NCBI RefSeq assembly: GCF_000375585.1
Contig: NZ_AQWP01000014.1
Location: forward strand, 62,001-126,000
DNA: 64,000 bases
Source of the DNA: Sinorhizobium meliloti 4H41
Lineage (GTDB): Bacteria; Pseudomonadota; Alphaproteobacteria; Rhizobiales; Rhizobiaceae
Direction: 5' to 3'
Shown in pieces: positions 13,502-51,678 of this stretch. Every line of letters starts with the position of its first letter. Position 1 is the first letter of the stretch. Both the position numbers and the translations under genes were made by a program. Under the pieces are notes generated by a model. The model was given only the letters and a program-made list of their open reading frames with translations. It was not told the DNA's origin and searched no databases.

Positions 13502-14358
13502 GCGTGCCTGTCCATATCGCTGATGATGATCTGTCTTAGCGTTTCGTCGACGACCGGCCTCAGACCGAACCATTTCTCGAATCCGGGCACTGCCTGATGG
13601 AGAAGCATGCCGAGTCCGTCGACGGTGCGGAAGCCCTGCTCTTCCGCCTGCCGCAACAGCGGCGTTGTCAACGGCACGTAGACGATGTCGGTGACGACGG
13701 CCTCTGGCGCCAGGCCCGAAAAGTCGATCGCCGGCGCCGGCTCGCCGTTCATGCCGAGCGAGGTCGTGTTGACGAAGAGGCCGGCACCGGAAACGACCTC
13801 GGGAAGCGCCGCCATCGAATGTGCGTGCACCGCCGTGCCGAAGCGATCGGCCAGTTCCCTCGCCCTCTCGGGGGTGCGGTTCACCACATGGATCGTCTTG
13901 ACCCCTCGGTCCCGGATCGCCTGGATCACCGCCCGGCTGGCGCCGCCGGCACCGAGAATCACTGCGGCCGAGATGCGGTCCCATCCTTTGGCGTTCTCGT
14001 CCAGATTGGCGACGAAGCCACGCCCGTCGGTGTTCGTCGCGCGGATTTCTCCATTTTCGAGCCAGAGGGTGTTGGCCGCTCCGAGTTCGGCGCTGAGCTC
14101 GTCCGGCCGATCGGCCAGCCGGAAGGCGGTCTCCTTATGCGGAATCGTGACATTTCCGCCGCAGAAATCGGTTCTTCCTTCCTTGATCTGCCGCATGAAA
14201 TCGGGGAAGGCCTCGGGCGTGACCTCGTGGGCCCGGTAGCTTCCCCGAATTCCGAACTGCTTCAGCCAATGGCCATGAATGAGCGGCGATCGCGAATGCT
14301 TCACCGGATAGCCGGTTACAAAGGCATGGTTAACAAATGTTTCACGTGAATCATGCAT
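13498..14358 (-). CDS. aroE: Shikimate dehydrogenase
   Basis: A 286-residue AroE, the NADPH enzyme that reduces 3-dehydroshikimate in aromatic amino acid synthesis. It shows the substrate motif [17 protein letters not shown] (about 15-31), catalytic Lys in NVTIPHKE, and the nucleotide-binding [12 protein letters not shown] start at the ATG at 14358 (MHDSRETF), overlapping the maf end by 8 bp. A parS-like site (14338-14353) covers the first codons, so the codons GAT TCA CGT GAA double as part of that site. It is coupled to coaE downstream. Confidence 0.95.
14338..14353. promoter_or_regulatory. parS-like ParB-binding site 1
   Basis: TGTTTCACGTGAATCA differs at one position from the parS consensus TGTTTCACGTGAAACA. 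It spans the maf stop and the first aroE codons, about 2 kb left of the probable origin. Confidence 0.75.
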
Positions 14359-14950
14359 CGATCGCACCCAGTTCGCGGAGCTTGGAGAGAAGCGGCAGCA
14401 TCGGCAGGCCGAGTATGGTGAAGTAGTCGCCCTCGATGGTCTCAAAGAGCTGGATGCCCTCGCCTTCGAGCTGATAGGCGCCGACGCTTGTCAGCGCCTT
14501 CTCGCCCACCCTTGCAAGATGTCGATCTATGAAGCCGTCGCTCAATGGCCGCACGGTCATCTTCGCAGTCGAGACGTGCCGCCAAACGACCTCGTCGTCG
14601 CGCACGAGAACGATCGCACTGTTGAGACTGTGCGTCCTGCCCGAGAGCGACCGGAGATGCTCGGCGGCTTCCGTCTTGTCGCGGGGCTTGTGATAGACGC
14701 GGGTTCCAAGCGACATCGTCTGATCCGAACCGATGACAAGGGCGTTCGGAAAATACCGTGCGACATCCTTCCCCTTGGCCTCGGCAAGCGCCAGGGCGAC
14801 ATCGGCCGGCGAAGCACCAGACGCTTCCAGCGGCTGCTCGAGCGCACGCTCGTCGATCGCGGCGGCCCGGGCCTCGAAGGCCAATCCTGCATTGGCAAGC
14901 AGAGTGCGACGAAAAGGACTGGCCGAGGCCAATACGAGCAAGGATTTCAT
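14351..14950 (-). CDS. maf: Maf-family nucleotide pyrophosphatase
   Basis: A 199-residue Maf protein. It shows [17 protein letters not shown] at residues 7-23, [11 protein letters not shown] in the middle and a [31 protein letters not shown] block. Maf proteins hydrolyse dTTP/UTP or modified NTPs and limit their misincorporation or affect division. The motif set (a Q rather than a second acidic residue in SDQT) fits the YceF-like, m7GTP-acting subgroup better than the dTTP group, but this is tentative. It is the first of the coupled maf-aroE-coaE genes. Confidence 0.9.
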
Positions 14951-14998
14951 TTTTCCGGTTCCGTGTTCGCGGTCTGCAAGCTGTTCTTGCGGCTCGCT

Positions 14999-15820
14999 CT
15001 ATCTAAGCCGCGGCCGCAGGGCAACAATTGCGGCGGCAGTCTCCTCTATCGAGCGCCGCGTCACGTCGATCAGCGGCCAGTTGTTGCGCGCGCAAAGCGA
15101 GCGGGCATATTTCAGCTCCTCGGCGATCGCCGCCCGGTCGGTATAGTCTTCCCCGTGGAAGCTCTGCGTCGTTCCGAGCACGCGATGCTGGCGCACCTGG
15201 GAGAGGCGCTCGGCCGAAGCGATGAGCCCGACGATGAGCGGTTTCGTCGCCTTCAGGAGCGCATCGGGCAGGGACACGCCGGGCACGATCGGAATGTTCG
15301 CCGTCTTTATACCGCGATTGGCGAGATAGATGCTCGTCGGTGTTTTCGACGTGCGGCTCACACCCACAAGGACCACATCCGCCTCGTTGAAATCGGAGGG
15401 AATCTGACCGTCGTCATGATCCATCGTGAAGTTCAACGCCTCGATACGGGCGAAGTATTCGGCATCCATGACATGCTGCGCGCCCGAGCGGCGGCGCGAG
15501 GGCGAGCCGAGATAGGATTGGAAAAGTTCGATGATCGGGTCGAGGACCGAGACGCAGGGCACGCCGATCTCGCGGCACCGCTGATCGATGAGGCCGGCAA
15601 GTTCCCGGTCGACGATCGTGTAGAGGACGATTCCCGGTGCCCCGTCGACCGCGTCCATGACCTGCATCAGCTGCTTCCGGTTGCGGATCAGCGGATAGAC
15701 GTGTTCCAGCGCATGGGAGGTCTGGAATTGCGCTGCAGCGGCTCGACCGGCGGCGATCAGAGTTTCGCCGGTCGAATCGGAGATCAGATGCAGATGGAAG
15801 TAGTTTTTGCGGTTCTCCAC
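14999..15820 (-). CDS. ppsR: Pyruvate,phosphate dikinase/PEP synthase regulatory kinase-phosphorylase
   Basis: A 273-residue DUF299 protein. It starts [14 protein letters not shown] and has a P-loop-like [18 protein letters not shown] near residue 154. The family reversibly phosphorylates PPDK or PEP synthase with ADP as donor, controlling the pyruvate-PEP branch. The GTG at 15820 has GGAG 8 nt upstream. It is the gene immediately left of the predicted origin, transcribed away from it; in Caulobacter and rhizobia the origin lies between this side and hemE. Confidence 0.92.
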
Positions 15821-16225
15821 GCAATTCTCCGCGGTCTGTTGATAAGGCGGGACAAAAACAGCTAACGGCGGCGCCTGGCTTCAGGCAAGTGGAAAAGCGG
15901 CGACTTGTTCACATCTGACACCGAACCGGAAATCTCTTGCCGGGGCATGTGGACAAGACTCATGGCCACGACAAATTGTCACGCGGATCGACTCCTCATC
16001 CACAGGAACCGCAAACTCCCGACCGCCGGCAAAGGACTGACTCTGCAGTGTTTTCCCGGGTTTCCCCGCTCAACGCGCAAATTGGCCGGAATCCCTCCCG
16101 CCTTTTTGCGGGAGATTGAGGCGGACTGGATAGGATGAGGATCGATTTTAATCCTTGATACCCACCGACTCTAAGAAATAGAAACCTTATAAATTCAGTT
16201 TTATTTTTAGATTAGGAAGCGGCAA
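15821..16225. other. oriC: Probable chromosomal replication origin (oriC)
   Basis: This 405-bp gap separates divergent ppsR and hemE and holds no credible gene. DnaA-box-like 9-mers (consensus TTATCCACA) are TTATCAACA (minus, 15837-15845), TTGTCCACA (minus, 15948-15956) and TCATCCACA (15996-16004), each with one mismatch, plus TTGTTCACA at 15906-15914 with two. Four GANTC methylation sites, all GACTC, lie at 15957, 15990, 16039 and 16167. An AT-rich segment (16141-16215) just before hemE could be the unwinding element. In Caulobacter crescentus and S. meliloti the origin is known to lie beside hemE. Gene orientation reverses here, and parAB is 7 kb away. Confidence 0.8.
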
Positions 16226-17257: not shown

Positions 17258-17267
17258 AAGGGCAGCT

Positions 17268-17866: not shown

Positions 17867-17882
17867 CGCTTCACGTGAATCG
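17867..17882. promoter_or_regulatory. parS-like site 2 (degenerate flanks)
   Basis: The site contains the perfect core TTCACGTGAA (17870-17879) but four flank mismatches to the 16-bp consensus. It lies in the hemJ-rho gap, 1.6 kb right of the origin. Confidence 0.5.
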
Positions 17883-18006: not shown

Positions 18007-19272
<1,266 letters not shown>

Positions 19273-19396: not shown

Positions 19397-19412
19397 TGAT
19401 TCACGTGAAACG
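19397..19412. promoter_or_regulatory. parS-like site 3
   Basis: TGATTCACGTGAAACG matches the parS consensus at 14 of 16 positions and lies in the intergenic DNA between rho and mnmE. Confidence 0.7.
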
Positions 19413-20962: not shown

Positions 20963-20984
20963 GGGCGTTTCACGTGAAACGCCC
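20963..20984. promoter_or_regulatory. parS-like site 4, a 22-bp perfect palindrome
   Basis: The 16-bp centre CGTTTCACGTGAAACG (20966-20981) is extended by GGG/CCC to a 22-bp perfect palindrome. It lies in the short mnmE-mnmG gap and is the most symmetric of the series. It could also form a hairpin in the read-through transcript. Confidence 0.8.
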
Positions 20985-21043: not shown

Positions 21044-22921
21044 ATGTCTGAGATGGACTATGATGTCATTGTGATCGGTGGAGGCCACGCAGGCTGCGAG
21101 GCTGCCTCTGCTTCCGCGCGGCTCGGCGCCCGTACAGTTCTCATCACACATAAAAGGAATACGATCGGGGTAATGTCCTGCAACCCCGCGATCGGCGGGT
21201 TGGGCAAGGGCCACCTCGTTCGGGAGATCGATGCGCTCGACGGCCTCATGGGACGTGTGGCCGATGCCGCGGGTATTCAGTTCCGGCTTCTCAACCGGCG
21301 TAAGGGGCCTGCAGTGCGCGGTCCCCGCACCCAGGCAGACCGCAAGCTGTATCGCGAGGCGATGCAGCGGGAGATCGACGGGATCGAGCACCTCTCGGTG
21401 ATCGAAGGGGATGCCTTCGACCTGTTGACCGAAGACGGTGTGGTTCGTGGCGTGATTATGAAGGACGGCCGAGTCTTTCGCGCATCAGCCGTCGTTCTCA
21501 CGACCGGCACGTTTCTAAAGGGCCTCATTCATATCGGCCAGCGCAAGATACCGGCCGGTCGCGCGGGCGAGGAACCGTCCTTGGGTCTCTCTGAGACACT
21601 GCGGCGCTTCGGCCTGCAGCTTGGTCGATTGAAGACCGGCACGCCGGCGCGCCTGGACGGACGCACGGTCGAGTGGGACCGCGTCGGGCGTCAAGGCCCG
21701 GACGAAAATCCGGTCCCGTTCTCCTTCATGACCGATGCGATCATCAATCGCCAGATTGATTGCGGCGTGACGCGGACCACGGATGCGACGCATAAGATTA
21801 TCGCCGATAACATCCACCAGTCCGCGATGTATTCGGGACAGATCGGAGGCGTTGGCCCACGCTACTGCCCCTCTATCGAGGACAAGATCGTCCGCTTCGG
21901 CGAGAGAGATGGACACCAGATCTTTCTGGAGCCGGAGGGACTAGACGATGACACCGTCTATCCGAACGGGATTTCGACCTCCCTTCCCGAGGATGTGCAG
22001 GACGCCTTCATTCGTACGATTCCCGGTCTGGAGCAGGTCAAGATTCTCCAGCCGGGTTACGCGATCGAGTACGATCATGTCGATCCGCGGGAGCTGGAAC
22101 TTTCCCTGGGCGTGCGCAAAATGCCCGGACTGTATCTTGCGGGTCAGATAAACGGCACGACGGGATATGAAGAAGCCGGAGCTCAGGGCCTCGTTGCCGG
22201 TTTGAATGCCGCGCTTCGCGCGAGCGGACGAGCTCCCTATGTCTTCAGCCGCACGGACTCCTATATCGGCGTGATGATCGATGACCTGACCTCGCGGGGA
22301 ATAAGCGAACCCTATCGCATGTTTACCTCGCGGGCGGAATACAGGCTGTCGTTGCGCGCAGATAATGCCGATATGCGGCTGACGCCAGCGGGCATTGCGC
22401 TCGGATGTGTCGGCGACGCGCGCCGTCAACGCTTCGAGGCATGGAAGCATTCCTTCGAGACGGGACGCAGGCTCCTGCAGTCACTTTCGGTTACGCCAAG
22501 CGAGGGCAAGCGTTTCGGCCTGAAGCTCAATCAGGACGGCCAGCGTCGTACCGCTTTCGATATCCTCTCTTATCCGGATCAGTCGATCGCTGCTTTGAAA
22601 CCGGTTTGGTCCGAACTTCAAAACATTCCGGCCGGGGTGGTCGAGGCGCTGGAGATCGATGCGGCCTATGCTGTCTATATGGATCGCCAGGCCACTGACA
22701 TTGCCGGTGTAAGGCGTGACGAGAATACGATCATACCGGATGATTTCGATTACGACGTGCTTCCCGGGCTTTCGAACGAGCTGAAGCAAAAGTTGGCACA
22801 ACACAAGCCGCGGAACCTCGCCCAGGCTATGAAGGTCGATGGCGTGACGCCCGCGGCGATATCTCTCATTCTGTCCTGGCTACGAAGGCAGGATCGCCAG
22901 GCACAACGTGTGGGTGGATAG
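21044..22921 (+). CDS. mnmG: tRNA modification enzyme MnmG (GidA)
   Basis: A 625-residue FAD protein and partner of MnmE in cmnm5U34 formation. The dinucleotide motif [14 protein letters not shown] is at about residues 7-20; later [16 protein letters not shown]-like sequence (here [25 protein letters not shown]), GTFLKG and [20 protein letters not shown]-type blocks are present. The GGAG at 21039 is too close to the ATG at 21044 and fits the in-frame ATG at 21053 (MDYDVIV) better, so the true product may be three residues shorter. rsmG follows after 8 bp. Confidence 0.97.
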
Positions 22922-22929
22922 GGTATACA

Positions 22930-23571
22930 ATGCAAGCGAGTCTAGTTCCGGCACTGAACGGATTGCGTGTTTCACGTGAAACGGTCGAAAAGCTCGAGCA
23001 TTTTGCCTCCCTCTTCCAGAAATGGGCGCGATCGATCAATCTCGTCGCCCCCTCGACGCTGGGGGATCTATGGCAGCGCCATATCCTAGATAGCATCCAG
23101 CTTTATCAACTCTCCCCTGCCCCGAAGACCTGGGTCGATCTCGGAAGCGGCGGAGGATTTCCTGGGGTCATTACGGCCATTTGTCTTTCCGAGGCAGAGA
23201 ACGGATGGGTTCACCTGGTCGAGAGCAATAACAAGAAGGCTGCCTTTTTACGCGTCGCGCTCAGGGAAACCGGTGCCAGGGGTTCCGTTCATCCGATTCG
23301 AATCGAAGCGGCACCCGCTGAAATCCCGAATTGCGACGCGATTTCGGCGCGTGCGCTCGCCGATCTGAGCCAACTGCTCGATCTTTGTGCGCCATGGATG
23401 CTCATGGAAGGCTCCAAAACGGTGGCATTCTTTCACAAAGGGCGGGATTATCAGCAGGAAGTCGACAAAGCCGTTAGCCGCTTTCAATTCGATCTGTTAA
23501 AACATGCAAGTGTCGTCGAGCCGGATTCGGTTGTGCTCGAGATTGCAAATCTTTCACGTCGGACGAAGTGA
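22930..23571 (+). CDS. rsmG: 16S rRNA (guanine527-N7)-methyltransferase
   Basis: A 213-residue GidB/RsmG that methylates G527 of 16S rRNA with SAM. It shows [19 protein letters not shown] (about 37-55), the SAM motif [14 protein letters not shown] and [12 protein letters not shown]. Loss of this enzyme commonly gives low-level streptomycin resistance. A parS-like site lies within its first codons (22968-22983), encoding RVSRETVE, so the protein sequence there is constrained by two functions. parA begins 14 bp after its stop. Confidence 0.95.
22968..22983. promoter_or_regulatory. parS-like site 5, inside rsmG
   Basis: TGTTTCACGTGAAACG matches the parS consensus at 15 of 16 positions. It is within the 5' coding part of rsmG, about 600 bp before parA. 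Confidence 0.8.
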
Positions 23572-23585
23572 TAGGCGAGCGAAAC

Positions 23586-24380
23586 ATGTTTGGCCCAAAG
23601 AATCGGATCATCACTATTGCCAATCAGAAGGGCGGCGTCGGCAAAACGACGACGGCCATCAATCTTGCTACGGCGCTGGCCGCCATCGGTGAAAGGGTGC
23701 TGATCGTCGATCTCGATCCGCAAGGCAATGCGAGCACCGGGCTGGGTATCCAGCGTCGTGCCCGGCATCTGTCTTCCTACGAGCTGATGATGGGGACCCA
23801 TTCGATCGGCCAGATTGCCCAGGATACGGCGGTGCCAAATCTGGCCATCGTGCCTTCGACCATGGATCTGCTCGGCGTCGAGATGGAGATTTCCAAGGAA
23901 TCGGATCGAGTTTTCAGGCTGCGTAAGGCTTTGGCTTCGGTGGACGCTCTTGCCTATTCCTATGTGCTGGTCGACTGCCCGCCATCGTTCAATCTTTTGA
24001 CGATGAACGCAATGGCAGCCGCGCATTCGGTTCTCGTACCATTGCAGTGTGAGTTTTTTGCGCTAGAAGGCTTGAGCCAGCTGCTGGAGACGGTCGATCA
24101 GGTGCGGCAGACGGTGAATCCGGGCCTCGATATTCAGGGCATCGTGCTGACCATGTTCGATTCCCGGAACAATCTCGCCCAGCAAGTTGTCAGCGACGTT
24201 CGCTTGCATTTGGGAGATAAAGTTTATCATACCCTCATTCCCCGCAATGTGCGGGTGTCCGAGGCCCCTTCCTATGGCAAGCCGGCCATTCTTTATGATC
24301 TCAAATGCGCCGGAAGTCAGGCCTATCTCCAACTGGCTTCGGAAGTCATTCAGCGCGAGAGGCAGCGGAAGGCCGCTTAA
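23586..24380 (+). CDS. parA: Chromosome-partitioning ATPase ParA
   Basis: A 264-residue ParA/Soj ATPase. The deviant Walker A KGGVGKTTTAINLA is near residues 14-27, switch I/II DLDPQGNASTGLG follows, and DCPPSFNLLTMNAM is the Walker B region. ParA-ATP binds DNA non-specifically and moves ParB-parS complexes to segregate the origin region. I start at the ATG at 23586 (MFGPKNR), preceded by AGGCGAGCG; an upstream GTG frame overlaps rsmG. parB follows, 32 bp downstream. Confidence 0.97.
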   Translation: MFGPKNRIITIANQKGGVGKTTTAINLATALAAIGERVLIVDLDPQGNASTGLGIQRRARHLSSYELMMGTHSIGQIAQDTAVPNLAIVPSTMDLLGVEMEISKESDRVFRLRKALASVDALAYSYVLVDCPPSFNLLTMNAMAAAHSVLVPLQCEFFALEGLSQLLETVDQVRQTVNPGLDIQGIVLTMFDSRNNLAQQVVSDVRLHLGDKVYHTLIPRNVRVSEAPSYGKPAILYDLKCAGSQAYLQLASEVIQRERQRKAA

Positions 24381-24412: not shown

Positions 24413-25303
24413 ATGAACGATGACAGCTCCAAGAGGCGTCTGGGTCGCGGCCTTGCCGCGTTGATCGGCGAAATGGACCAGCCGCTGAACGCCGGCGCGG
24501 CTCCGGCCGCCGCCATCAGCGCCGATCGGCGGATCCCGATCGAGTTCGTTTCCCGCAACCCTCGCAACCCCCGCCGGCAGTTCGACGAGGCTGAGCTGCA
24601 GGACCTTGCAAGCTCGATCCGCCAGCACGGCATCGTTCAGCCGGTCGTCGTGCGCACCGTCGGTCACGACCGCTATGAGATCATTGCCGGTGAAAGGCGC
24701 TGGCGCGCGGCGCAACTTGCGGGCTTCACCGAAATACCGGTCATCGTGCGCGATGTCGACGACAGGACAGCGCTCGAGATCGCCATTGTCGAGAACGTTC
24801 AGCGCTCCGACCTCAATCCCCTCGAAGAAGCCCTGGGCTACGAGCAACTGATCGCGGAACACGGCTACACGCAGAACGATCTCGGCGACATCATCGGCAA
24901 GAGCCGGAGCCATGTTGCGAACAGCCTTCGCCTTCTGAAGCTGCCGGAGCCCGTGCGCGACATGCTTTCCGATGGCAGCCTTTCCGCGGGCCATGCCCGC
25001 GCCCTTATACCCACATCGGACCCAGTGGCCTTGGCGCGTGCGGTCGTCTCGAAAGGTCTTTCGGTCCGCGAGGCCGAACGGCTGGCGCAGAATGACATCA
25101 AGTCGCAGAACGATCCCAACTACGCAAAGGGCCGCCAGCGCGAGGAGAAGGACGCCGATACGCTGGCGCTGGAGCGCACCCTGTCCGATAGCCTCGGCCT
25201 GGAAGTGAGTGTCAACCACAAGGCCAGTGGCGGGCACCTCAAGATTACATATAAGACGCTCGACCAGTTGGAAGAGATTTGCCGGCTGCTCGAGCGGCGT
25301 TGA
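24413..25303 (+). CDS. parB: Chromosome-partitioning protein ParB
   Basis: A 296-residue ParB. The N-terminal region has the short basic ParA-interacting stretch RRLGRGLAALIGEMD. The CTPase/ParB core has IVQPVVVRTV, the nucleotide-contact GERRWRAAQLAG and ENVQRSDLNPLEEALGY. The HTH lies at about residues 152-175 (TQNDLGDIIGKSRSHVANSLRLL), and the C-terminal dimer domain ends VNHKASGGHLKITYKTLDQLEEICRLLERR. It binds parS; eight parS-like sites are present in this window. The last codons form one arm of a hairpin shared with the holA end. Confidence 0.97.
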   Translation: MNDDSSKRRLGRGLAALIGEMDQPLNAGAAPAAAISADRRIPIEFVSRNPRNPRRQFDEAELQDLASSIRQHGIVQPVVVRTVGHDRYEIIAGERRWRAAQLAGFTEIPVIVRDVDDRTALEIAIVENVQRSDLNPLEEALGYEQLIAEHGYTQNDLGDIIGKSRSHVANSLRLLKLPEPVRDMLSDGSLSAGHARALIPTSDPVALARAVVSKGLSVREAERLAQNDIKSQNDPNYAKGRQREEKDADTLALERTLSDSLGLEVSVNHKASGGHLKITYKTLDQLEEICRLLERR

Positions 25304-30556: not shown

Positions 30557-32464
30557 ATGGCGAGCCGCTATTCCGAAGTGTATGCCGCGTGGAAGGCCGA
30601 TCCGCACGGCTTCTGGGCAGATGCCGCATCGGCGATTGACTGGTTCGAGCGGCCTGCGCGCATTTTCGAGCCTGCCGGCGGCACCTATGGCCACTGGTTT
30701 CCGGACGGCGTCACCAATACCTGCCACAACTGCCTCGACCGGCATGTCGAGGCCGGCCGAGGCGAGCAGCCGGCCTTTATCTATGACAGCCCCGTCACCG
30801 GCCGGATCGAGAGGATCTCCTATGCGGACCTGCTCGCCGATGTGAAGGCGATGGCTGCAATCTACCGCAAGCTGGGCGTCGACAAGGGCGATCGCATCAT
30901 CATCTACATGCCGATGATTCCGCAGGCGGCGATCGCCATGCTCGCGGCAGCGCGGATCGGCGCGGTGCATTCTGTCGTTTTCGGCGGCTTTGCCGCCAAC
31001 GAACTTGCCATGCGCATCGATGATTGCCAGGCGAAGCTCGTCGTCTCGGCAAGCTGCGGGCTGGAGCCCGGTCGGACCGTCGCCTACAAGCCTCTGCTCG
31101 ATCAGGCGATCGAAACGGCCGGCCACAAGCCGGCCCATTGCCTGATCTATCAGCGCGATATGCTCGCCGCCTCGATGGTTCGCGGCCGCGACATCGATTT
31201 CGCCGAGGCGCTTGCGCAGGCCAGAGACGCCGGTGAGGAAGCCTCTTGCACGCCGGTCGCCTCCACCGATCCGCTTTATGTCCTCTATACGTCCGGGACG
31301 ACCGGCCAGCCGAAAGGCGTCGTGCGGGACAATGGCGGCCATATGGTCGCGCTCAAATGGTCGATGGAGAACTTCTTCGGCGTCAATGCCGGCGACGTGT
31401 TCTGGGCGGCTTCCGACATCGGTTGGGTGGTCGGTCATTCCTACATCGTCTACGGGCCGCTCCTTACCGGCTGCACGTCGATCCTCTTCGAAGGAAAACC
31501 GGTCGGGACGCCCGACCCCGGAACCTATTGGCGCGTGATTTCCGAACACGGCGTCGCCGTCATGTTCACTGCGCCGACGGCGCTGCGAGCGATCCGGAAA
31601 GAGGATCCGGAAGCTGTCTATGCAGGCCGTTACGACCTGTCGCGGTTCCGGGCGCTCTATCTTGCGGGCGAGCGGGCCGACCCGGACACGATCCGCTGGG
31701 CGGAACGGGCGCTGAAGGTTCCGGTCATCGATCACTGGTGGCAGACGGAAACAGGATGGCCCGTCGCCGGCAATCCATTGGGTCTCGGCCTCCTGCCGGT
31801 AAAATACGGTTCCCCGGCCGTTCCCCTCCCCGGCTACGACGTGCAGGTCGTCGACGACGCGGGGCACCCGGTGGAAACCGGCACGCTCGGCAATGTCGTG
31901 ATCAAGCTGCCTTTGCCGCCCGGCTGCCTGCCGACGCTTTGGAATGCCGATCACCGCTTCCATGCGGCCTATCTCGAGGAATATCCCGGCTTCTACAAAA
32001 CGGCGGATGCCGGCTATCTCGACGAGGACGGCTATATCTTCATCATGGCGCGGACCGACGACATCATCAACGTTGCGGGACACCGGCTGTCGACGGGGGC
32101 CATGGAAGAGGTTTGCGCCAGCCATCCGGATGTCGCCGAATGCGCCGTGATCGGCATCGCCGATCCCCTCAAGGGGCAGGTGCCGGCGGGCTTCCTGGTC
32201 ATCAACGCCAATGTTTCCCGTGAAACAGAAGAAATCGAGAAGGAGGTCATCGGTCTCGTGCGCGAGCGCATCGGGCCGGTCGCCGCCTTCAGGACGGCGG
32301 TCTGCGTCAAGCGGCTGCCAAAGACGCGATCCGGCAAGATCCTGCGCTCTACGATCCAGAAGATCATCGACCGCCAGCCCTGGACGATGCCGGCGACGAT
32401 CGACGATCCGGCGATCCTCGACGAGATTACCGAACTGTTGCGGTCAAAGGGGATTGGCGCTTAG
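30557..32464 (+). CDS. prpE: Propionyl-CoA synthetase
   Basis: A 635-residue acyl-CoA synthetase of the PrpE group. The AMP-binding motif YTSGTTGQPKGVVRDNGGH is near residue 243, WWQTETGWPVAGNP follows, and the C-terminal catalytic Lys lies in [13 protein letters not shown] near 592. The VVRDNGGH variant and DNA-length match PrpE rather than Acs. It activates propionate, probably also acetate or other short acids. The ATG at 30557 is preceded by GGGAGGAAA. A parS variant lies within it (32212-32227), and its TAG stop is part of a dispersed repeat. Confidence 0.9.
   Translation: MASRYSEVYAAWKADPHGFWADAASAIDWFERPARIFEPAGGTYGHWFPDGVTNTCHNCLDRHVEAGRGEQPAFIYDSPVTGRIERISYADLLADVKAMAAIYRKLGVDKGDRIIIYMPMIPQAAIAMLAAARIGAVHSVVFGGFAANELAMRIDDCQAKLVVSASCGLEPGRTVAYKPLLDQAIETAGHKPAHCLIYQRDMLAASMVRGRDIDFAEALAQARDAGEEASCTPVASTDPLYVLYTSGTTGQPKGVVRDNGGHMVALKWSMENFFGVNAGDVFWAASDIGWVVGHSYIVYGPLLTGCTSILFEGKPVGTPDPGTYWRVISEHGVAVMFTAPTALRAIRKEDPEAVYAGRYDLSRFRALYLAGERADPDTIRWAERALKVPVIDHWWQTETGWPVAGNPLGLGLLPVKYGSPAVPLPGYDVQVVDDAGHPVETGTLGNVVIKLPLPPGCLPTLWNADHRFHAAYLEEYPGFYKTADAGYLDEDGYIFIMARTDDIINVAGHRLSTGAMEEVCASHPDVAECAVIGIADPLKGQVPAGFLVINANVSRETEEIEKEVIGLVRERIGPVAAFRTAVCVKRLPKTRSGKILRSTIQKIIDRQPWTMPATIDDPAILDEITELLRSKGIGA
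32212..32227. promoter_or_regulatory. Variant parS-like site 6, inside prpE
   Basis: TGTTTCCCGTGAAACA matches the consensus at 15 of 16 positions, but the mismatch falls in the central CACGTG. It may bind ParB weakly or be a chance relic. Confidence 0.4.
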
Positions 32465-35945: not shown

Positions 35946-35961
35946 TGATTCACGTGAAACC
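35946..35961. promoter_or_regulatory. parS-like site 7
   Basis: TGATTCACGTGAAACC matches the parS consensus at 14 of 16 positions. It lies in the promoter region between sdhAF4 and htpX, 19.7 kb right of the origin. Confidence 0.65.
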
Positions 35962-43729: not shown

Positions 43730-43875
43730 TCGCCCAGCCGCGATATCCACTTCATCCCTCCCCGGCACTTGCGCAAGCGCGCCGCGTTCGGGGGCGGCGG
43801 GCAGGGCAATGAAGAACAACCTTCGACCGGAGCGGAATTGGTTCCTCCGGCCGAGTTATGGCCGGAGGGACTGTG

Positions 43876-46800
43876 TCATTTCGTCCAGCCGCGTGCAAGA
43901 TCGCTGAGGAGACCGGCTGCGACAGTGACCTTGGCGAGCGTCGTTTCGCCCTTTTCGGTCAGGAGCCTCAGCTGGTCGCCGACAGTGGCGACGCGTTGGC
44001 GATCGCGATCCTGCCAGGCGAGAACGGGGTTTCGCTCGCCCTTATGCTCGACCAGGGCGGCGATGGTGATATCGCGGCGTGCGGTGCCGATATCGCCGAC
44101 CGCCCGCGAGAGCGCCATCGACTCGAACTGCTCGGTGGCGGGCACGCGGTCGGCGGCCGCCAGCAGGCGGTTGATCCTCAGGCTTTCGGTGACGGTGAAA
44201 TAGGCCTGGGCGGTGCGGCTCAGCGGCTCGCCGGTTACCGTGGCGATCTGCATGATCTCAGGGACCAGGGTCATGAGCGACAGTTCGGCGACTTCCTCGG
44301 CAAGCTTTGCCGGCACGCCGTTTTCGATGAAGCCGGCGGCCCTCAGGCGAGCTTCCTCGGCACCCTCCCTGGATATCGCCGCCCGCATGGTGCCGCGCAG
44401 CTTCTGCAGCCCGTCGCGAAGCCGGGCAACCGCTTCGGCCACGGAGCCCTCAGAGGCGCGGGTGCGCAGCGCCCGTTCGGCGACGAGCGCAAAGATACGC
44501 CCCACCTCGTGATAGAGCCGGTTCTGGATCACGCCGCTGATCCTGTTGTCGAGCGCGTCGATCTCGCCGTAGATGCGCGGCAGATCGAAGCCATCCAGGG
44601 CCAGCACCGCTGCCTTCACGACATCGGCGGAGAGGAAGCCGGTGGCATCCGTCAGCGTCGAAACGAAAGCGGGGCCGCCGCGGTTTATCGTTTCGTTGGC
44701 GAGTACGGTCGCGATGATTTCGCGGCGCAGCCGGTGCCCGTGAATGTCGCCGGCATAGGCCTTGCGCATCTTTGCGGGGAAGTAGCGCTCCAGGGTCGCC
44801 GTGAAATAGGGGTCGTCCGGAAGCTCGCTGACGAGCAGCTCGTCGAAGAGCACCAGTTTCGCATAGGAGAGCAGCACGCCGATCTCCGGGCGCGTGAGCG
44901 GCCGGCCCGCCTGGTAGCGCTCGCTCATCGCCTGGTCGGTCGGCAGGGTCTCGACCTTGCGGTTGAGGTGGCCGTCGGCCTCCAGCCGCGCCATCAGCCG
45001 CGCCAGCGGGGTGCGGTTGGCGAGGCCCTGCATCTCGGTGAGCGAGATCGCCAGCGACTGCTGGTAGTTGTTGCGCAGCACGAGATGTCCCACCTCGTCC
45101 GTCATCGATGCCAGAAGCGTGTTGCGCTTGGGCCGGGTCAGGCGGCCTTCGCGCATGGCGGAGGCAAGCGCGATCTTGATGTTGACCTCGACGTCGGAGG
45201 AATTGACGCCGGCCGAGTTGTCGATGGCATCGGAGTTGCAACGCCCGCCATTGAGCGAGAAGCCGATCCGGCCTTTCTGGGTGACGCCGAGATTGGCCCC
45301 CTCGCCGATCACGCGCGCCCGCACGTCCTCGGCGGAGACGCGGATCGCGTCGTTGGCACGGTCGCCAACCTCGGCATCCGTCTCGTTGGTGCCGCGCACA
45401 TAGGTGCCGATGCCGCCGAACCAGAGCAGGTCGACCGGGCTCTTCAGGATTGCGCTCATGATCTCGAAGGGCGTCGCCTTCGGCTTGTCGATGCCGATCG
45501 CCGCCATCGCTTCGGGGGTGAGTGTCACCAGTTTTTCCGAACGCGAAATGATCATCGCGCCGGGCGAGAGCGCCTTACGGTCATAATCCTGCCAGCTGGA
45601 GCGCGAAAGCGCGAACATTCGCTTGCGCTCGGCAAAGGAGAGATCGATATCCGGCTCGGGATCGATGAAGATGTCGCGGTGGTCGAAGGCGGCGATCAGC
45701 CGGATCTTTTCCGAAAGCAGCATGCCGTTGCCGAAGACGTCGCCCGACATGTCGCCGACGCCGGCGACGGTGAAGGGCGTCGTCTGGATGTCGACGTCCA
45801 TTTCGCGGAAGTGCCGCTTGACGGCCTCCCACGCGCCGCGCGCGGTGATTCCCATCTTCTTGTGGTCGTAGCCGGCGGAGCCGCCTGAGGCGAAGGCGTC
45901 GTCCAGCCAGAAGTCCGCTTCCTGGGCGAGCGCATTCGCCGTGTCGGAGAAGGTTGCCGTTCCCTTGTCGGCGGCAACGACGAAATAGGGGTCGTCGCCG
46001 TCGAGCCGCAGCGTGTCCTCCGGGGGAACGACGTCCTGGCCGACGATATTGTCGGTGACGGAGAGCAGCGTGCGGATATAGGTCTTGTACGCCTCCGTTC
46101 CCGCCTTGAAGACCTCGTCGCGGCTGCCGCCGACGGGCAGCTGCTTCGGATAGAAGCCGCCTTTGGCGCCGACCGGAACGATGACGGCGTTCTTCACCTG
46201 CTGCGCCTTGACGAGGCCGAGCACCTCGGTCCGGTAATCCTGCGCCCGGTCGGACCAGCGAAGGCCGCCGCGCGCCACCTTGCCGAAGCGCAGATGGACG
46301 CCTTCCACTTCCGTGCCGTAGACGAAAATCTCTCGGAAAGGCCGCGGTTCCGGCAGGCCTTCGAGCTGTTTCGGATCGAGCTTGAAGGCAAGAACCGCGC
46401 GCGGCCTGCCTTCGGCGTCCTTTTGGAAATAGTTCGTCCGGAGCGTCGACTGGACCGCATTGACGTAGCGGCGCAGGATCCGGTCTTCGTCGAGGCTGGG
46501 CACGGCCGACAGAGCCTCCTCGATGCCCGACAGCAAGGCGTTGCACTTCTTGGTGCGCGCTTTCCCCTCCGTCGTCGGATCCATGCGCGTGGAGAAGAGG
46601 CGGAAGATGTCGGCGGCGATCGTCGGATACTTGTTCAGAGTATCGGCGATATAGCCTTGGGAATAGGTGATGCCGGCCTGGCGCAGGTAGCGCGCATAGG
46701 CGCGCAGCACCGTGATTTCGCGGGCGGTGAGCCCGGCAAGCAGGACCAGCCGGTTGAAGTTGTCGTCCTCCGTCGTGCCGTTCCAGGCCGCCAGGAAGGC

Positions 46801-48663
46801 CTCCTCCAGGGCCGGGCCGATCCTGGCGAGATTGAGCGTGTGCCCGTCGCGATGGATCAGCTCCATGTCGTGAAGGACGACCTCGCGGGGCTCGTCCCCA
46901 TGGACGTGCACGCCGATGTCGTAGGTCTGCTCGCTGATGACACGGAAGCCGAGATTTTCGAGAAGCGGCACGCGGCGCGACAGCGAAACGGGCGTGTCGG
47001 CATGGAAGATCTTCAGTTCCAGCGTATCCGGCCGCTCCTGGTGCCGGTGGTAGAAGGAGATGCGGATCGGGTCGCCGGCCGTGCAGGCGGCGATGTCTCC
47101 GAGGTCGGCATAGGCTTCCGCGGGCGTGAAGGCCGCCTGATAGGCTTCACCAACCGATATCTCCGTGCCCTCCTTGCGGGCGAGCAGATTGAACCGATCG
47201 ATCCAGCGGGTGACGATGGCGCGGACCGCCTCTTCGAGCTTCGCCTGGGGAACCCGTGGCGTCTTGCCGCCCGAGCGGCCGATGATGAAATGGACGCGTG
47301 CAAGCCCGCCTTCGGGAAAGGCCGGGTAATAGGCCGAGACCCGGCCGTCATAGACCGTTTTCAGATAGTCGCCGATCTTTTCGCGGACGTCGGAATCGTA
47401 TTGTTCGCGCGGCACGAACACGATGACCGAGACGAAGCGGTCGAAGTGGTCGATGCGCGGCAGCACCCGCACCCGGGGCCGGTCGCCGAGCTCGTTGATC
47501 TGCTCGCAGAAGGCGGCGAGCAGCCCGATATCGATCTGGAAAAGATCGTCGCGCGGATAGGCCTCCAGCGTGTTGGCCAGCGTCTTGCCGGAATGGCTCT
47601 GCGGATCATAGCCGAAATGATCGACGATCTTCTCGATCTTGTGCCTGAGCAGCGGGATCTCCGACGCCTGGCGCGTGTAGGCCGTCGAGGTGAACAGACC
47701 GACGATGCGCAGTTCGCCGACGACGTTGCCGGAGGCGTCGAAACGCTTGATGCCGATATAGTCCATGTGGGCACGCCGGTGGACGACCGACTTCACATTG
47801 GCCTTGGTGACGATCAGGAAGTCGGGCCCCTCGAGGAAGGCGAGGATTTCCGGGGTGGTCAGCACCGCATCCTTGCCCTGGCGCAGGACCCGCACGTCCG
47901 GATTGGACAGGATGCCGAGGCCCCTGCCCTTGCCGCGCTCGACCGTCGCCCGTTCGCCCTTGCCGGAATAGGTATATTCCCGCATTCCGAGAAAGGTGAA
48001 GTTGCTATCCCTTAGCCAGCGAAGGAACGCCAGCGCCTCGTCGCGGTCGCTCTTCTTGCGGGAAGCGTTGTATTCCTCGAGCTCCCGCATTGCCTGGTCG
48101 AGCAGAGCGGTCATTGCCGGCCAGTCGTGTACGGCTTGATGAACCTGCTCCAGCACATCCGAGATGCGCTTGCTCAATGAGCGTGCCTCCAGCGGAGTCA
48201 GCCTGCTCAAGTGGATTTGAATGTGGCTGACGCGGTGCTCGGGCGCGCTTTCCTCGTCCGGATCGAACAGCTTCACGGGTTTGCCGGGCTCCATCACCAG
48301 AATTGGATGGATCGCCAGGTGGATGTCGCGGTGGGTGCTCGTCACCTCTCCCATCACCGAATCGTAAAGGAAGGGCATGTTGCGTTCGGTGATCGCGATG
48401 ATCGAAACCTCGATACCGCCCGGTGCGACCCCTGCCACCGTCTCCACCGAGACCTGCGGCTTGCCGCCGTCCCAGCGTGCGAGTTCGCTGCGTGCGTGGG
48501 CAGCGGTGAGCGCCAGCATCTCAGGCGTGTAACGGTCGAGGTCGTCGTTGCTCGCTCCGCCGAAGAGGATTTCCGGTGGCAGTGTCTCGGCCCCGAATCT
48601 GGACCCTGCCGCCCGGGCCGCATCGATGTGCCGGTCCCGCTTCGGATTATGCTTCACGCCCAT
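43876..48663 (-). CDS. gdhB: NAD-specific glutamate dehydrogenase, large type
   Basis: A 1595-residue NAD-GDH of the 180-kDa class. Long N-terminal ACT-like domains (about 1-600) precede the catalytic part, seen in ARGGLRWSDRAQDYRTEVLGLVKAQQVKNAVIVPVGAKGGFYPK near residue 830, and a helical C-terminal domain. It deaminates glutamate to 2-oxoglutarate, mainly for catabolism. I start at the ATG at 48663 (MGVKHNPK), 7 nt after GGAGAG; the alternative GTG at 48678 has no site. The 283-bp upstream gap is A-rich and shared with pdxY. Confidence 0.94.
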   Translation of the reverse strand: MGVKHNPKRDRHIDAARAAGSRFGAETLPPEILFGGASNDDLDRYTPEMLALTAAHARSELARWDGGKPQVSVETVAGVAPGGIEVSIIAITERNMPFLYDSVMGEVTSTHRDIHLAIHPILVMEPGKPVKLFDPDEESAPEHRVSHIQIHLSRLTPLEARSLSKRISDVLEQVHQAVHDWPAMTALLDQAMRELEEYNASRKKSDRDEALAFLRWLRDSNFTFLGMREYTYSGKGERATVERGKGRGLGILSNPDVRVLRQGKDAVLTTPEILAFLEGPDFLIVTKANVKSVVHRRAHMDYIGIKRFDASGNVVGELRIVGLFTSTAYTRQASEIPLLRHKIEKIVDHFGYDPQSHSGKTLANTLEAYPRDDLFQIDIGLLAAFCEQINELGDRPRVRVLPRIDHFDRFVSVIVFVPREQYDSDVREKIGDYLKTVYDGRVSAYYPAFPEGGLARVHFIIGRSGGKTPRVPQAKLEEAVRAIVTRWIDRFNLLARKEGTEISVGEAYQAAFTPAEAYADLGDIAACTAGDPIRISFYHRHQERPDTLELKIFHADTPVSLSRRVPLLENLGFRVISEQTYDIGVHVHGDEPREVVLHDMELIHRDGHTLNLARIGPALEEAFLAAWNGTTEDDNFNRLVLLAGLTAREITVLRAYARYLRQAGITYSQGYIADTLNKYPTIAADIFRLFSTRMDPTTEGKARTKKCNALLSGIEEALSAVPSLDEDRILRRYVNAVQSTLRTNYFQKDAEGRPRAVLAFKLDPKQLEGLPEPRPFREIFVYGTEVEGVHLRFGKVARGGLRWSDRAQDYRTEVLGLVKAQQVKNAVIVPVGAKGGFYPKQLPVGGSRDEVFKAGTEAYKTYIRTLLSVTDNIVGQDVVPPEDTLRLDGDDPYFVVAADKGTATFSDTANALAQEADFWLDDAFASGGSAGYDHKKMGITARGAWEAVKRHFREMDVDIQTTPFTVAGVGDMSGDVFGNGMLLSEKIRLIAAFDHRDIFIDPEPDIDLSFAERKRMFALSRSSWQDYDRKALSPGAMIISRSEKLVTLTPEAMAAIGIDKPKATPFEIMSAILKSPVDLLWFGGIGTYVRGTNETDAEVGDRANDAIRVSAEDVRARVIGEGANLGVTQKGRIGFSLNGGRCNSDAIDNSAGVNSSDVEVNIKIALASAMREGRLTRPKRNTLLASMTDEVGHLVLRNNYQQSLAISLTEMQGLANRTPLARLMARLEADGHLNRKVETLPTDQAMSERYQAGRPLTRPEIGVLLSYAKLVLFDELLVSELPDDPYFTATLERYFPAKMRKAYAGDIHGHRLRREIIATVLANETINRGGPAFVSTLTDATGFLSADVVKAAVLALDGFDLPRIYGEIDALDNRISGVIQNRLYHEVGRIFALVAERALRTRASEGSVAEAVARLRDGLQKLRGTMRAAISREGAEEARLRAAGFIENGVPAKLAEEVAELSLMTLVPEIMQIATVTGEPLSRTAQAYFTVTESLRINRLLAAADRVPATEQFESMALSRAVGDIGTARRDITIAALVEHKGERNPVLAWQDRDRQRVATVGDQLRLLTEKGETTLAKVTVAAGLLSDLARGWTK

Positions 48664-48946
48664 GAAATCGCTCTCCACTCATGATGGTTGAACCTAGCAG
48701 AACCATGCCCAATGGCGACCGTTTTTATGATGGATTTCGGCAAAATCGAGCCGGATTTTGGAGAAAATCACGTAGATTCGACCTAAATCCATTTAAATCG
48801 AAGCCAATTTTGCAAAAATTTCCCGAAAAACCGCAAAAACGAACGAAAACGCCGAAGTTTCTGTCACGTGGGTCTGCACGAGCGGCAGTTGACAGTCCGT
48901 GAGGGGCGGGCGATCACACTTCGAAAGCGAATAACGGGGTCTCCCA

Positions 48947-49987: not shown

Positions 49988-50671
49988 ATGCAGCAGGAAC
50001 GAGTGGATGAAACGGGGTTACCGATGGATATACAGGGCTTTCCGGAACATCTTCTGACCGGCTACCGCAATTTCATGAGCGGGCGCTTCACCGAACAGCA
50101 GCAGCGCTACAAAACCCTCGCCGAGAGCGGTCAGAAACCGAGGACGATGGTCATCGCCTGTTGCGACTCCCGCGCCGCGCCCGAAACGATCTTCGATGCC
50201 GGCCCGGGAGAACTCTTCGTCGTGCGCAACGTCGCCAACATGATGCCGCCCTATGAACCGGACGGACATTATCATTCGACCTCGGCCGCGCTCGAATTCG
50301 CGGTCCAGTCGCTGCGGGTCACCAACATCGTGGTCATGGGCCACGGGCGCTGCGGCGGCATCAAGGCGGCACTCGACCCGGACGCCGAGCCCCTCTCCCC
50401 GGGCGATTTCATCGGCCGCTGGATGAACCTCCTGAAGCCGGCCGCCGAGCAGATCCAGAGCAATGACGTGATGACGCCGGCGGAACGACAGCGTGCGCTC
50501 GAGCGGGTCTCGATCCGCAATTCGATCGCCAATCTGAGGACGTTCCCCTGCGTGAACGTTCTGGAGTCGAAGGGAAAGCTTCGTCTCCACGGCGCATGGT
50601 TCGACATCTCGACCGGCGAGCTCTGGGTGATGGACGCGAAGACCGGCGATTTTTCCCGACCGGGAACGTAA
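49988..50671 (+). CDS. Beta-class carbonic anhydrase
   Basis: A 227-residue beta-carbonic anhydrase. The first zinc Cys with its Asp-Arg dyad is CCDSRAAPETIFDAGPGELFVVRNVANMMPP (from about residue 57), and the His/Cys ligands are in MGHGRCGGIKAAL near 117. It interconverts CO2 and bicarbonate. The ATG at 49988 follows CAGGAGCACCAGGACG; an internal ATG (MDIQGFPEHL) at residue 13 is an alternative. It stands alone; a RIME-like repeat follows it. Confidence 0.94.
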   Translation: MQQERVDETGLPMDIQGFPEHLLTGYRNFMSGRFTEQQQRYKTLAESGQKPRTMVIACCDSRAAPETIFDAGPGELFVVRNVANMMPPYEPDGHYHSTSAALEFAVQSLRVTNIVVMGHGRCGGIKAALDPDAEPLSPGDFIGRWMNLLKPAAEQIQSNDVMTPAERQRALERVSIRNSIANLRTFPCVNVLESKGKLRLHGAWFDISTGELWVMDAKTGDFSRPGT

Positions 50672-50691
50672 CGGTCGCCGTTCAAGGCCGC

Positions 50692-50758
50692 TCATCCGCC
50701 CGCCTGTCCCTTCTCCCCCGCTAGCGGGAGAGAAGTCGCGGCAGCGGGCTGAGGGGCA
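50692..50758. repeat. RIME-like palindromic repeat
   Basis: TCCCTTCTCCCCCGCTAGCG and GGAGAGAAGTCGCGGCAGCGG form an inverted repeat around CTAG, like the other RIME-like blocks, between the convergent carbonic anhydrase and transglycosylase genes. It may serve as their terminator. Confidence 0.7.
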
Positions 50759-50767
50759 AACGCACTG

Positions 50768-51589
50768 TCACCTGCCGTCGATTTCGGCGCCGATGATGGC
50801 GATCGCCTGCTGATAGACGCTGGCGGCATTCCAGCCCTGGATGGCGGCGAAGTTGACCTCGCCCGGCTGATAGCCGCCACCCGGCTGCCAACCATGGCCG
50901 CGCAGGAAATTTGCGGTTGAGGCAAGCGCATCCGCTTTGGAGCGGACCATGTCGACATGGCCGTTGCCGTCCCCGTCCACGCCGTATTTCAGCACGTTCA
51001 CCGGGAGGAATTGCGTCTGCCCGATCTCGCCGTGCGCCGCCCCGCGGGCGGCCGGGCTGAGGTCGCCGCGCTCGACGAGCTGGAGGGCGGCGTAGAGCTG
51101 ATTGGTGAAATAGTCGGAGCGGCGACAATCATAGGCGAGCGTCGAGACGGCGGAAAGCGTGTGTTCCTTGCCCAGGAACGAGCCGAAGCCGGTCTCCATG
51201 CCCCAGATGGCGATCAGTGGGCCGGCGGGAACGCCGTAGCGCTGCTCGATGCTCTGGAAGAGCTTGGCGTTCTGCGCCCGCAGCTTCTTGCCGCGCGAAA
51301 TGATCACCTGACCGCCGCGCTTCTGCATGAACTGGTCGAGCGACAGCTTGAAGCTCTTCTGGCCGCGATCGGCGCGGATCGTCGCCCTGCTATAGGAGAC
51401 GTTGGCGAGTGCCTGGTCGATCACCGAAGGGCTGATGCCGTTCCCGGCGGCTTCGCGCTTGAATTCCGACAGCCAGGCGGAGAAGCCGCTGCCGTCATTG
51501 CCGCACTGCGCCGCAGAGGCGTCCGCCGGAAGAATTACGGTTGAGATCAGGGCCGCCAGGCCCGCTGCTGCGCTCTTCACCCTATGCAT
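50768..51589 (-). CDS. Lytic murein transglycosylase, MltB/SLT70-3 type
   Basis: A 273-residue secreted protein. The signal peptide (about 1-27, VKSAAAGLAALISTVILPADASA) ends at an AXA site. The catalytic Glu is in IWGMETGFGSFLGKEHTLSAVSTLAYDCRR near residue 130, and AAHGEIGQTQFLP and ANFLRGHGWQPGGGYQPGEV follow, the MltB pattern. It cleaves peptidoglycan to anhydro-muropeptides. It lacks the C-terminal peptidoglycan-binding domain of some relatives. It is the second transglycosylase in the window, besides mltA. Confidence 0.92.
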   Translation of the reverse strand: MHRVKSAAAGLAALISTVILPADASAAQCGNDGSGFSAWLSEFKREAAGNGISPSVIDQALANVSYSRATIRADRGQKSFKLSLDQFMQKRGGQVIISRGKKLRAQNAKLFQSIEQRYGVPAGPLIAIWGMETGFGSFLGKEHTLSAVSTLAYDCRRSDYFTNQLYAALQLVERGDLSPAARGAAHGEIGQTQFLPVNVLKYGVDGDGNGHVDMVRSKADALASTANFLRGHGWQPGGGYQPGEVNFAAIQGWNAASVYQQAIAIIGAEIDGR

Positions 51590-51662
51590 GGATTACCCCG
51601 TCGATTGCCCGAATTTGTTGCCTTCGAAATGCCGCTTCGTCATCCGCTCGCCGCCGGCACGA

Positions 51663-51678
51663 TGGTTTCACGTGAATC
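51663..51678. promoter_or_regulatory. parS-like site 8
   Basis: GGTTTCACGTGAATCC has the perfect TTCACGTGAA core and matches 13 of 16 consensus positions. It is the most distant site, 35 kb right of the origin, between asd and the transglycosylase gene. Confidence 0.5.

What the first reader, a model, noticed from the sequence alone, without database searches (positions are those of the whole stretch)
14338..51678. Eight parS-like sites spread over 37 kb around parAB
Sites lie at 14338, 17867, 19397, 20966, 22968, 32212, 35946 and 51663, with matches of 15, 12, 14, 14, 15, 15, 14 and 13 of 16 to TGTTTCACGTGAAACA. Seven share the perfect TTCACGTGAA core. Five lie within 9 kb and straddle the origin and parAB, giving a centromere with a dense core and distant satellites. 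Flank variation suggests a ranking of ParB affinity.
Basis: partly seen in the sequence, partly recalled or inferred. Interest (0 to 1): 0.7.

Follow-up and report, generated by a model that had tools for sequence, protein, structure and literature searches.

The report
A conserved 97-kb bacterial centromere array
These short DNA sites are the centromere of a rhizobial chromosome: docking places, scattered around the replication origin, for the protein that helps pull newly copied chromosomes apart; the system is well known, but the array is larger than it looked and strikingly fixed in position and flavour in the related genomes that were compared.

Summary
All eight sites exist (the last starts at 51664, not 51663) and chance gives almost none (7 exact TTCACGTGAA cores against 0.01 expected). 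They are best read as parS sites of a standard chromosomal ParABS system. In the whole genome 9 of 11 exact cores fall in one 97-kb stretch; the other two have non-parS flanks. The window shows only part of the array: two more sites lie 61 and 51 kb left of oriC, giving ten sites on both arms. Seven of the ten are present in 12 of 12 genus genomes mapped, the other three in 11, 11 and 9. One further match is more likely a hairpin. The five core sites straddle the origin but not parAB. An affinity ranking is plausible but untested. Less expected: the two sites flanking mnmG are symmetric here, while the other sites mostly have one intact half (GTTTCAC) and one fixed variant half; at 32212 none of 30 genus genomes has the canonical codons, although 29 are one synonymous change away. 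Verdict: a well-mapped member of a known kind, with an untested asymmetry rule.

The parts
14338..14353 (.). parS site TGTTTCACGTGAATCA, inside the first codons of aroE (minus strand, GAT TCA CGT GAA ACA); left half intact
   Evidence: 12 of 12 genus genomes; 5 of 5 scorable site codons invariant against 19 of 164 other codons
17867..17882 (.). parS site CGCTTCACGTGAATCG between hemJ and rho; neither 7-base half intact in this genome, left half intact in 10 of 12 genus genomes
   Evidence: (exact core in 11 of 12)
19397..19412 (.). parS site TGATTCACGTGAAACG between rho and mnmE (trmE); right half intact
   Evidence: 12 of 12
20966..20981 (.). symmetric parS site CGTTTCACGTGAAACG between mnmE and mnmG; a site in this interval is found across alphaproteobacteria
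   Evidence: 12 of 12; 66 of 75 named loci have a site upstream of mnmG
22968..22983 (.). symmetric parS site TGTTTCACGTGAAACG inside rsmG (CGT GTT TCA CGT GAA ACG); a site just after mnmG is found across alphaproteobacteria
   Evidence: 12 of 12; 74 of 75 named loci; 40 of 40 sites in this bin symmetric; 6 of 6 site codons invariant against 25 of 128
32212..32227 (.). off-consensus parS-like site TGTTTCCCGTGAAACA inside an acyl-CoA synthetase-like gene; right half intact, left half with C at the sixth base
   Evidence: (11 of 12 within 3 mismatches)
35946..35961 (.). parS site TGATTCACGTGAAACC upstream of an M48 peptidase gene (it touches the TTG start of the mechanical ORF); right half intact
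   Evidence: (12 of 12)
51664..51679 (.). parS site GGTTTCACGTGAATCC between an SLT_2 transglycosylase gene and a semialdehyde dehydrogenase gene; left half intact
   Evidence: (12 of 12)
15821..16225 (.). probable oriC, between the kinase-PPPase (PpsR-type) gene and hemE, with DnaA-box-like 9-mers
   Evidence: (9-mers within 2 mismatches of TTATCCACA at similar places in 12 of 12 genus genomes; no chance control computed); the hemE-linked alphaproteobacterial origin is recalled
23568..24380 (+). parA, Walker-type partition ATPase
   Evidence: Pfam AAA_31; no NCBIfam equivalog above its cut-off among those shown
24413..25303 (+). parB (ParB_N, HTH_ParB, ParB_C); R, S, K, G at the Caulobacter 173/179/184/201 positions
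21044..22921 (+). mnmG, between the two symmetric parS sites
22930..23571 (+). rsmG (gidB), carries the 22968 site
13498..14358 (-). aroE, carries the 14338 site in its first codons
30557..32464 (+). acyl-CoA synthetase-like gene (best models propionate--CoA ligase) that carries the 32212 site
   Evidence: best scores are below the curated cut-offs

Best explanation
The sites are the parS centromere of the primary chromosome of a Rhizobiaceae bacterium. ParB dimers load on the parS sites, close into CTP-bound clamps and slide onto flanking DNA; the ParB-coated origin region is then moved by ParA and probably receives SMC. Ten sites on both arms of oriC (about -61, -51, -1.7, +1.9, +3.4, +5, +7, +16, +20 and +36 kb) make one origin-centred ParB domain: the two symmetric sites flanking mnmG, at positions used across the class, form the strong core, and the other sites, most with one intact half, extend it. 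Shown here: the sequences, their uniqueness, conservation and gene context, and the ParA/ParB families. Inferred from the family: binding, clamp sliding, segregation and the strength order.
For: Chance excluded. 9 of 11 exact cores of the genome lie in 96.9 kb; the two others have 6 and 5 flank mismatches. In 12 genus genomes 7 of 10 sites have the exact core 12 of 12, 17867 in 11 of 12, the leftmost in 9 of 12, and 32212 is within 3 mismatches in 11 of 12. Intergenic sites are invariant where the surroundings diverge: the -34.8 kb site 16 of 16 columns against 12 of 52 and 28 of 60; 35946 15 of 16 against 26 of 59 and 3 of 48. Sites inside rsmG and aroE are frozen at synonymous positions (6 of 6 against 25 of 128; 5 of 5 against 19 of 164). 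A site lies upstream of mnmG in 66 of 75 and just after it in 74 of 75 named loci. parA and parB lie beside them. ParB aligns with Caulobacter ParB, PDB 6t1f, E 2.7e-68. A. tumefaciens ParB1 is enriched at parS1 sites, whose consensus is that of B. subtilis (passages of PMC9239152).
Against: No binding data for this organism. The 17867 site (4 mismatches) and the 32212 site (altered core) might bind weakly or not at all; in Caulobacter two of seven putative sites bound weakly and were judged perhaps unlikely to matter in vivo (PMC5815017 section 17). Synonymous constraint at 32212 is only moderate (10th lowest of 212 windows). The leftmost site is lost in 2 and altered in 1 of 12 genomes. Flank alignments failed for some genomes at 19397, 20966 and 51664 and say nothing there; at 17867 and 32212 the site columns (13 and 11 of 16) are not far above their surroundings (28-37 of 59-60).
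Confidence: 0.94

Rival explanations
1. Only the near-symmetric sites around mnmG and oriC are a working centromere; the distant ones are relics or weak sites with no role.
For: In Caulobacter weak sites 1 and 6 bind little (PMC5815017 section 17); in P. aeruginosa one parS of the four nearest oriC is necessary and sufficient (title of PMC4368675, seen in the listings). The leftmost site is lost or altered in 3 of 12 genus genomes.
Against: The -34.8 kb, 35946 and 51664 sites keep an exact core in 12 of 12 genus genomes, at the first two while the surrounding DNA diverged; relics would drift.
Confidence: 0.2
2. Some parS-like matches are other elements, such as hairpins.
For: Likely for C14:53114 (window-equivalent -8886): the centre of a TCCGG-CGTTTC-loop-GAAACG-CCGGA inverted repeat whose loop varies in the genus (ACAT, ATGT, ATAT, ACGT) while the arms are largely kept; the stretch of the own genome folds with z -3.5; it lies just past the stop of a minus-strand ORF.
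Against: The arms are not perfect in every genome (G000, G003 and G016 each differ), and no run of T follows the stem in the own genome, so it is not a textbook terminator. For the ten retained sites the centre is fixed and the outer bases vary, the opposite pattern.
Confidence: 0.08
3. The conserved motif inside the acyl-CoA synthetase-like gene (32212) reflects protein or codon constraint, not ParB.
For: It encodes NVSRET in most genus genomes, and codon constraint there is only moderate (8 parsimony changes over 5 codons, 10th lowest of 212 windows).
Against: Where the DNA motif is present the preceding residue differs (N, H or G) but its codon ends in T in 38 of 39 genes (one AAC). Of 29 genes outside the genus without the motif, 22 begin G-V and 14 read G-V-x-R-D, so the peptide changed with the DNA. 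One relative (L215) has the canonical core at the same codons.
Confidence: 0.25

Closest known systems
Caulobacter crescentus ParABS and its parS cluster (PMC5815017)
   Same: Same consensus, ParB family and near-origin clustering; sites of unequal strength; the authors note that one half (GTGAAA) is the conserved one
   Different: Caulobacter's five strongest sites lie within 5 kb, on the left arm; here ten sites span 97 kb on both arms. Caulobacter ParB has R-T-A-G specificity residues (PMC7383237), this one R-S-K-G
Agrobacterium tumefaciens chromosome 1 ParB1/parS1 (PMC9239152)
   Same: Probably the same family of bacteria and the same consensus; ParB1 is enriched at parS1 near ori1 (passages)
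   Different: Its site list was not available to me (the 2022 PNAS paper is not held)
Bacillus subtilis parS, nine sites (PMC9239152 passage)
   Same: Dispersed sites; the four strongest are about 5, 13 and 39 kb apart (PMC5815017)
   Different: Binding and SMC loading were not compared here
Pseudomonas aeruginosa parS and half-parS sites (PMC10419367, passages)
   Same: ParB there binds single GTTTCAC or GTTCCAC half-sites; here most sites keep at least one GTTTCAC half
   Different: Here the second half is present as a fixed variant, and the sites cluster at the origin instead of being scattered

Membership tests
chromosomal ParABS (Spo0J/ParB type) | ParB with ParB_N, HTH_ParB and dimerisation domain | tested here: met
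   PDB relatives
chromosomal ParABS (Spo0J/ParB type) | ParA-type Walker ATPase encoded next to parB | tested here: met
   NCBIfam gives no equivalog above cut-off among the 25 of 30 families shown
chromosomal ParABS (Spo0J/ParB type) | 16-bp parS palindromes, enriched and near oriC | tested here: met
   oriC itself is inferred
chromosomal ParABS (Spo0J/ParB type) | sites conserved as sequence beyond their surroundings | tested here: met
   for the best-aligned sites; moderate for 32212
chromosomal ParABS (Spo0J/ParB type) | ParB residues that read parS, not NBS (R173, G201 in Caulobacter numbering) | tested here: met
   R, S, K, G; numbering from PMC7383237
chromosomal ParABS (Spo0J/ParB type) | ParB binds these sites, hydrolyses CTP and spreads | not testable with these tools
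   needs ChIP-seq and purified protein
Noc/NBS nucleoid occlusion | Noc-type specificity residues Q173, K179, K184, R201 | tested here: not met
   R-S-K-G. The NCBIfam Noc model is the highest-scoring model for this ParB (231 bits) but is below its cut-off of 315
repABC plasmid partition | RepA/RepB equivalog models above cut-off | tested here: not met
   RepA 113.6 against 348.45, RepB 53.5 against 201.5

The most novel reading that the evidence does not exclude
Hyphomicrobiales centromeres use two functional classes of parS: symmetric sites (GTTTCAC + GTTTCAC) next to mnmG as strong loading sites, and selected asymmetric sites with one intact half and one fixed variant half (GATTCAC, GACTCAC or, in the acyl-CoA synthetase-like gene, GTTTCCC), kept weak by selection to spread ParB over about 100 kb; a permissive lysine at ParB position 184 lets the protein use the variant halves.
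Probability: 0.22. Interest if true: 0.65.

Novelty: new member of a known kind. Interest (0 to 1): 0.4.

Why it matters
The array is a natural graded series of parS sites (symmetric, one-half variant, core variant) at fixed positions in the genus genomes examined, inside and outside genes. That makes directly testable how many parS sites a chromosome needs, whether weak sites are selected as weak, and how far apart ParB loading sites may lie, questions usually approached with engineered sites in model species.

Tried and rejected
Rejected: (1) chance clustering. (2) The -8886 match (C14:53114) as another parS: variable centre, largely kept CCGG-extended arms, next to a stop codon; it lacks a T run, so 'terminator' is not shown. 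(3) The two exact cores on C2 and C9 as distant parS: flanks do not match. (4) repABC or Noc identity. (5) A simple claim that lysine 184 caused the relaxed sites: one-half variants occur in 66 of 75 loci with K or R at 184 and 0 of 41 without, but parsimony on the MnmG tree needs only 4 changes of the residue and 8 of the site type, and three K184 loci outside the main clade (L059, L064, L068) have none, so shared descent can explain it. (6) 'The 32212 position is never canonical': false outside the genus, since L215 has the canonical core. (7) No Rfam family in the window at gathering scores. (8) A published parS map of this genus was not found in the held open library: searches were 25 of 433 papers listed; 16 of 16; 15 of 89; 12 of 100; 14 of 14; 19 of 19. 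Livny 2007 and the 2022 PNAS Agrobacterium paper are not held, so a published list may exist.

Rows dropped: 5 of 80 named loci without a ParB residue call (L050, L056, L067, L098, L103), 4 of 120 (L050, L067, L098, L103). In one search one named locus (L043) was dropped because its alignment stopped before the site; named loci without a match to the synthetase do not appear. One search matched 92 of 121 family genomes, but loci were given for only 30, two of them already held. The first synthetase script skipped the minus-strand loci; one search repeated it in full.
Full report
Observation. Seven carry the exact TTCACGTGAA core (7 found, 0.01 expected), and 32212 carries TTCCCGTGAA. Match counts are as stated. 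Five sites lie between 14338 and 22983. They straddle the probable oriC (between the kinase-PPPase gene and hemE, with 9-mers within 2 mismatches of a DnaA box at similar places in 12 of 12 genus genomes, no chance control computed) but all lie left of parA (23568) and parB (24413); the first site right of parAB is 32212.

Uniqueness. The window is C14:62001-126000 of a 6.79-Mb genome in 46 contigs. The genome has 11 exact cores: 9 on C14 between 16770 and 113676, one on C2 and one on C9 (reversed-pattern control 1). The C2 and C9 cores read ACGTTCACGTGAATTT and AGGTTCACGTGAACGG, 6 and 5 mismatches to the consensus, so they are poor parS candidates. Allowing 3 mismatches gives 15 places, 10 on C14 and 5 elsewhere, against a control of 3.

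The array is larger than the window. Two more sites lie at C14:16767 and C14:27215, 45 and 35 kb left of the window's start; the first is between two minus-strand ORFs that I read as a cytochrome P450 and the ORF before hslU, the second beside an ORF that I read as pckA (translations; names are my reading and were not scanned). With oriC near window position 16000, the ten sites stand at about -61, -51, -1.7, +1.9, +3.4, +5, +7, +16, +20 and +36 kb.

Conservation in the genus. I mapped 12 genus genomes (own plus 11). Seven sites (-34785, 14338, 19397, 20966, 22968, 35946, 51664) have the exact core in 12 of 12; 17867 in 11 of 12; 32212 is within 3 mismatches in 11 of 12; -45233 has the exact core in 9 of 12 (lost in G003 and G012, altered in G015). 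Sites keep their own flanks, for example TGTTTCACGTGAATCA at 14338 and TGTTTCACGTGAAACG at 22968 in 12 of 12. For the best-aligned intergenic sites the flanking DNA has diverged; flank alignments in that call failed for some genomes at 19397, 20966 and 51664 and are not used, and at 17867 and 32212 the contrast with the surroundings is small. In a core-only search of 40 genomes all 40 had a match: the 24 genus members (own included) had 8 to 12 copies (control 0 to 2), the 16 order-level relatives 1 to 13 (control 0 to 3), so in some of the latter the count is at control level.

Sites inside genes. 14338 lies in aroE codons 2-7, 22968 in rsmG codons 13-18, 32212 in the acyl-CoA synthetase-like gene. 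All three use the same reading frame, NNT then GTT or GAT, TCN, CGN, GAR, ACN. In 12 genomes the scorable site codons of rsmG are invariant 6 of 6 (other amino-acid-invariant codons 25 of 128) and those of aroE 5 of 5 (19 of 164). This points to DNA-level selection on top of protein coding.

One further match is probably not parS. At C14:53114, about 25 kb left of oriC, the centre varies (CACATG, CATGTG, CATATG, CACGTG) while the CCGG-extended arms are largely kept, with mismatches in G000, G003 and G016. The own-genome stretch folds well (z -3.5) and sits just past a stop codon of a minus-strand ORF, but no T run follows it. Real sites here show the reverse pattern (fixed centre, variable ends). 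I read it as a hairpin; a role in termination is a guess.

Symmetric and asymmetric sites. Among 75 named loci scored, 66 have a site upstream of mnmG and 74 just after it; this spans alphaproteobacteria. In 40 further loci, one per genus of the same family, 152 sites were listed, 138 with the exact core. Third and fourteenth bases: T/A (symmetric) 72, A/A 38, T/T 28, both variant 0; random pairing of halves gives a mean of 7.8 and never 0 in 20,000 shuffles. Because homologous sites recur, that shuffle overstates significance. By distance from parB: the 40 sites in the rsmG bin are all symmetric; the 16 in the -9.0 to -10.2 kb bin (the aroE position in the window; gene identity not checked in each) are all right-variant; the mnmE-mnmG bin holds 35 left-variant, 32 symmetric and 12 core-variant sites. 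Exceptions to 'at least one intact half': TGACTCACGTGAATCA in one family locus, 8 of the 9 exact-core copies of the leftmost genus site, and 17867 in this genome.

The 32212 site. In 30 genus genomes whose gene was fetched (of 33 searched), the codons are TCC CGT in 27, TCA CGG in 2 and TCC CGA in 1; none has TCA CGT, which would be synonymous and canonical; GTT is fixed in 30 of 30. Three of the 30 have CCG in place of ACN in the right flank and three have GAG for GAA. A pattern search of 33 genus genomes agrees: 28 have a match there, 26 TCC CGT and 2 TCA CGG. Outside the genus 9 of 38 genes examined carry the motif: seven CCCGTG, one CACGGG, one canonical CACGTG (L215). So the position is canonical in at least one relative, and one altered half is the usual state elsewhere. 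Synonymous constraint is moderate: 8 parsimony changes over 5 codons, 10th lowest of 212 overlapping windows.

ParB. It has all three ParB domains and aligns with Caulobacter ParB. At the Caulobacter positions 173, 179, 184 and 201 it has R, S, K, G. In the systematic study of PMC7383237 (passages and section 11 read) a lysine at 179 or 184 is permissive and the R-T-K-G variant of Caulobacter ParB is promiscuous; cytosine at half-site position 6 is the NBS base. So tolerance of the 32212 half is plausible, not shown. That study varied positions 1 and 6, not the base that differs in GATTCAC. The association of K/R184 with one-half variant sites (66 of 75 loci against 0 of 41) is confounded by descent. 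Flank mismatches are also higher with K/R184 (mean 1.03 against 0.32 per site), with the same caveat.

Mechanism. By family knowledge (recalled; starts of the abstracts of PMC8494293, PMC8367383 and PMC7053999 seen in the listings): ParB loads at parS, closes with CTP, slides, and the coated origin is moved by ParA. In S. meliloti, fluorescent ParB marks oriC at the poles (passages of PMC7822825). Caulobacter ParB spreads at most about 2 kb around one site in E. coli (PMC5815017 passages); if that held here, the distant sites would make separate ParB islands that could be joined only by bridging or clustering. That is inference.

Organism. The family is probably Rhizobiaceae by its nearest named relatives (Pararhizobium polonicum MnmG 78%; that search may leave out the nearest records). 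The genus is probably Sinorhizobium/Ensifer; this is recalled from genome size and gene order and was not established.

Verdict. The additions here are the two-armed extent, the fixity in the genus genomes mapped, the setting aside of one likely false site, and an asymmetry pattern that is testable but unproven.

Noticed in passing
C14:53110-53135, about 25 kb left of oriC and outside the window (window-equivalent -8886), locus L109: Hairpin TCCGG-CGTTTC-loop-GAAACG-CCGGA that mimics parS; its loop varies and its arms are largely kept in the genus.
   Followed up: yes
window 43876-48678 minus strand: 1600-residue ORF is a bacterial NAD-glutamate dehydrogenase; the long plus-strand ORFs 43858-45888 and 46294-48015 opposite it have no Pfam match and are probably antisense shadows.
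   Followed up: partly
window 30557-32464 and 33542-35491: Two nearby acetyl/propionyl-CoA synthetase-like genes with the same domain order.
   Followed up: no
G028:C3:12349-63501: An order-level relative has 11 exact parS cores within 51 kb on one contig, three of them within 205 bases, so dispersed arrays also exist outside the family.
   Followed up: no
L030:14353 and L032:14439: Two Rhizobium loci carry the CCCGTG hybrid form at another place, close downstream of parB.
   Followed up: no
L059:9947 and 11897: A proteobacterial MAG has CATGTG and CACATG in place of CACGTG at the two mnmG-flanking parS positions, with K184 in ParB.
   Followed up: no
C14:26707-27231, locus L108: The mechanical ORF beside the C14:27215 site starts inside the parS sequence itself; the true start is probably further in.
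   Followed up: no
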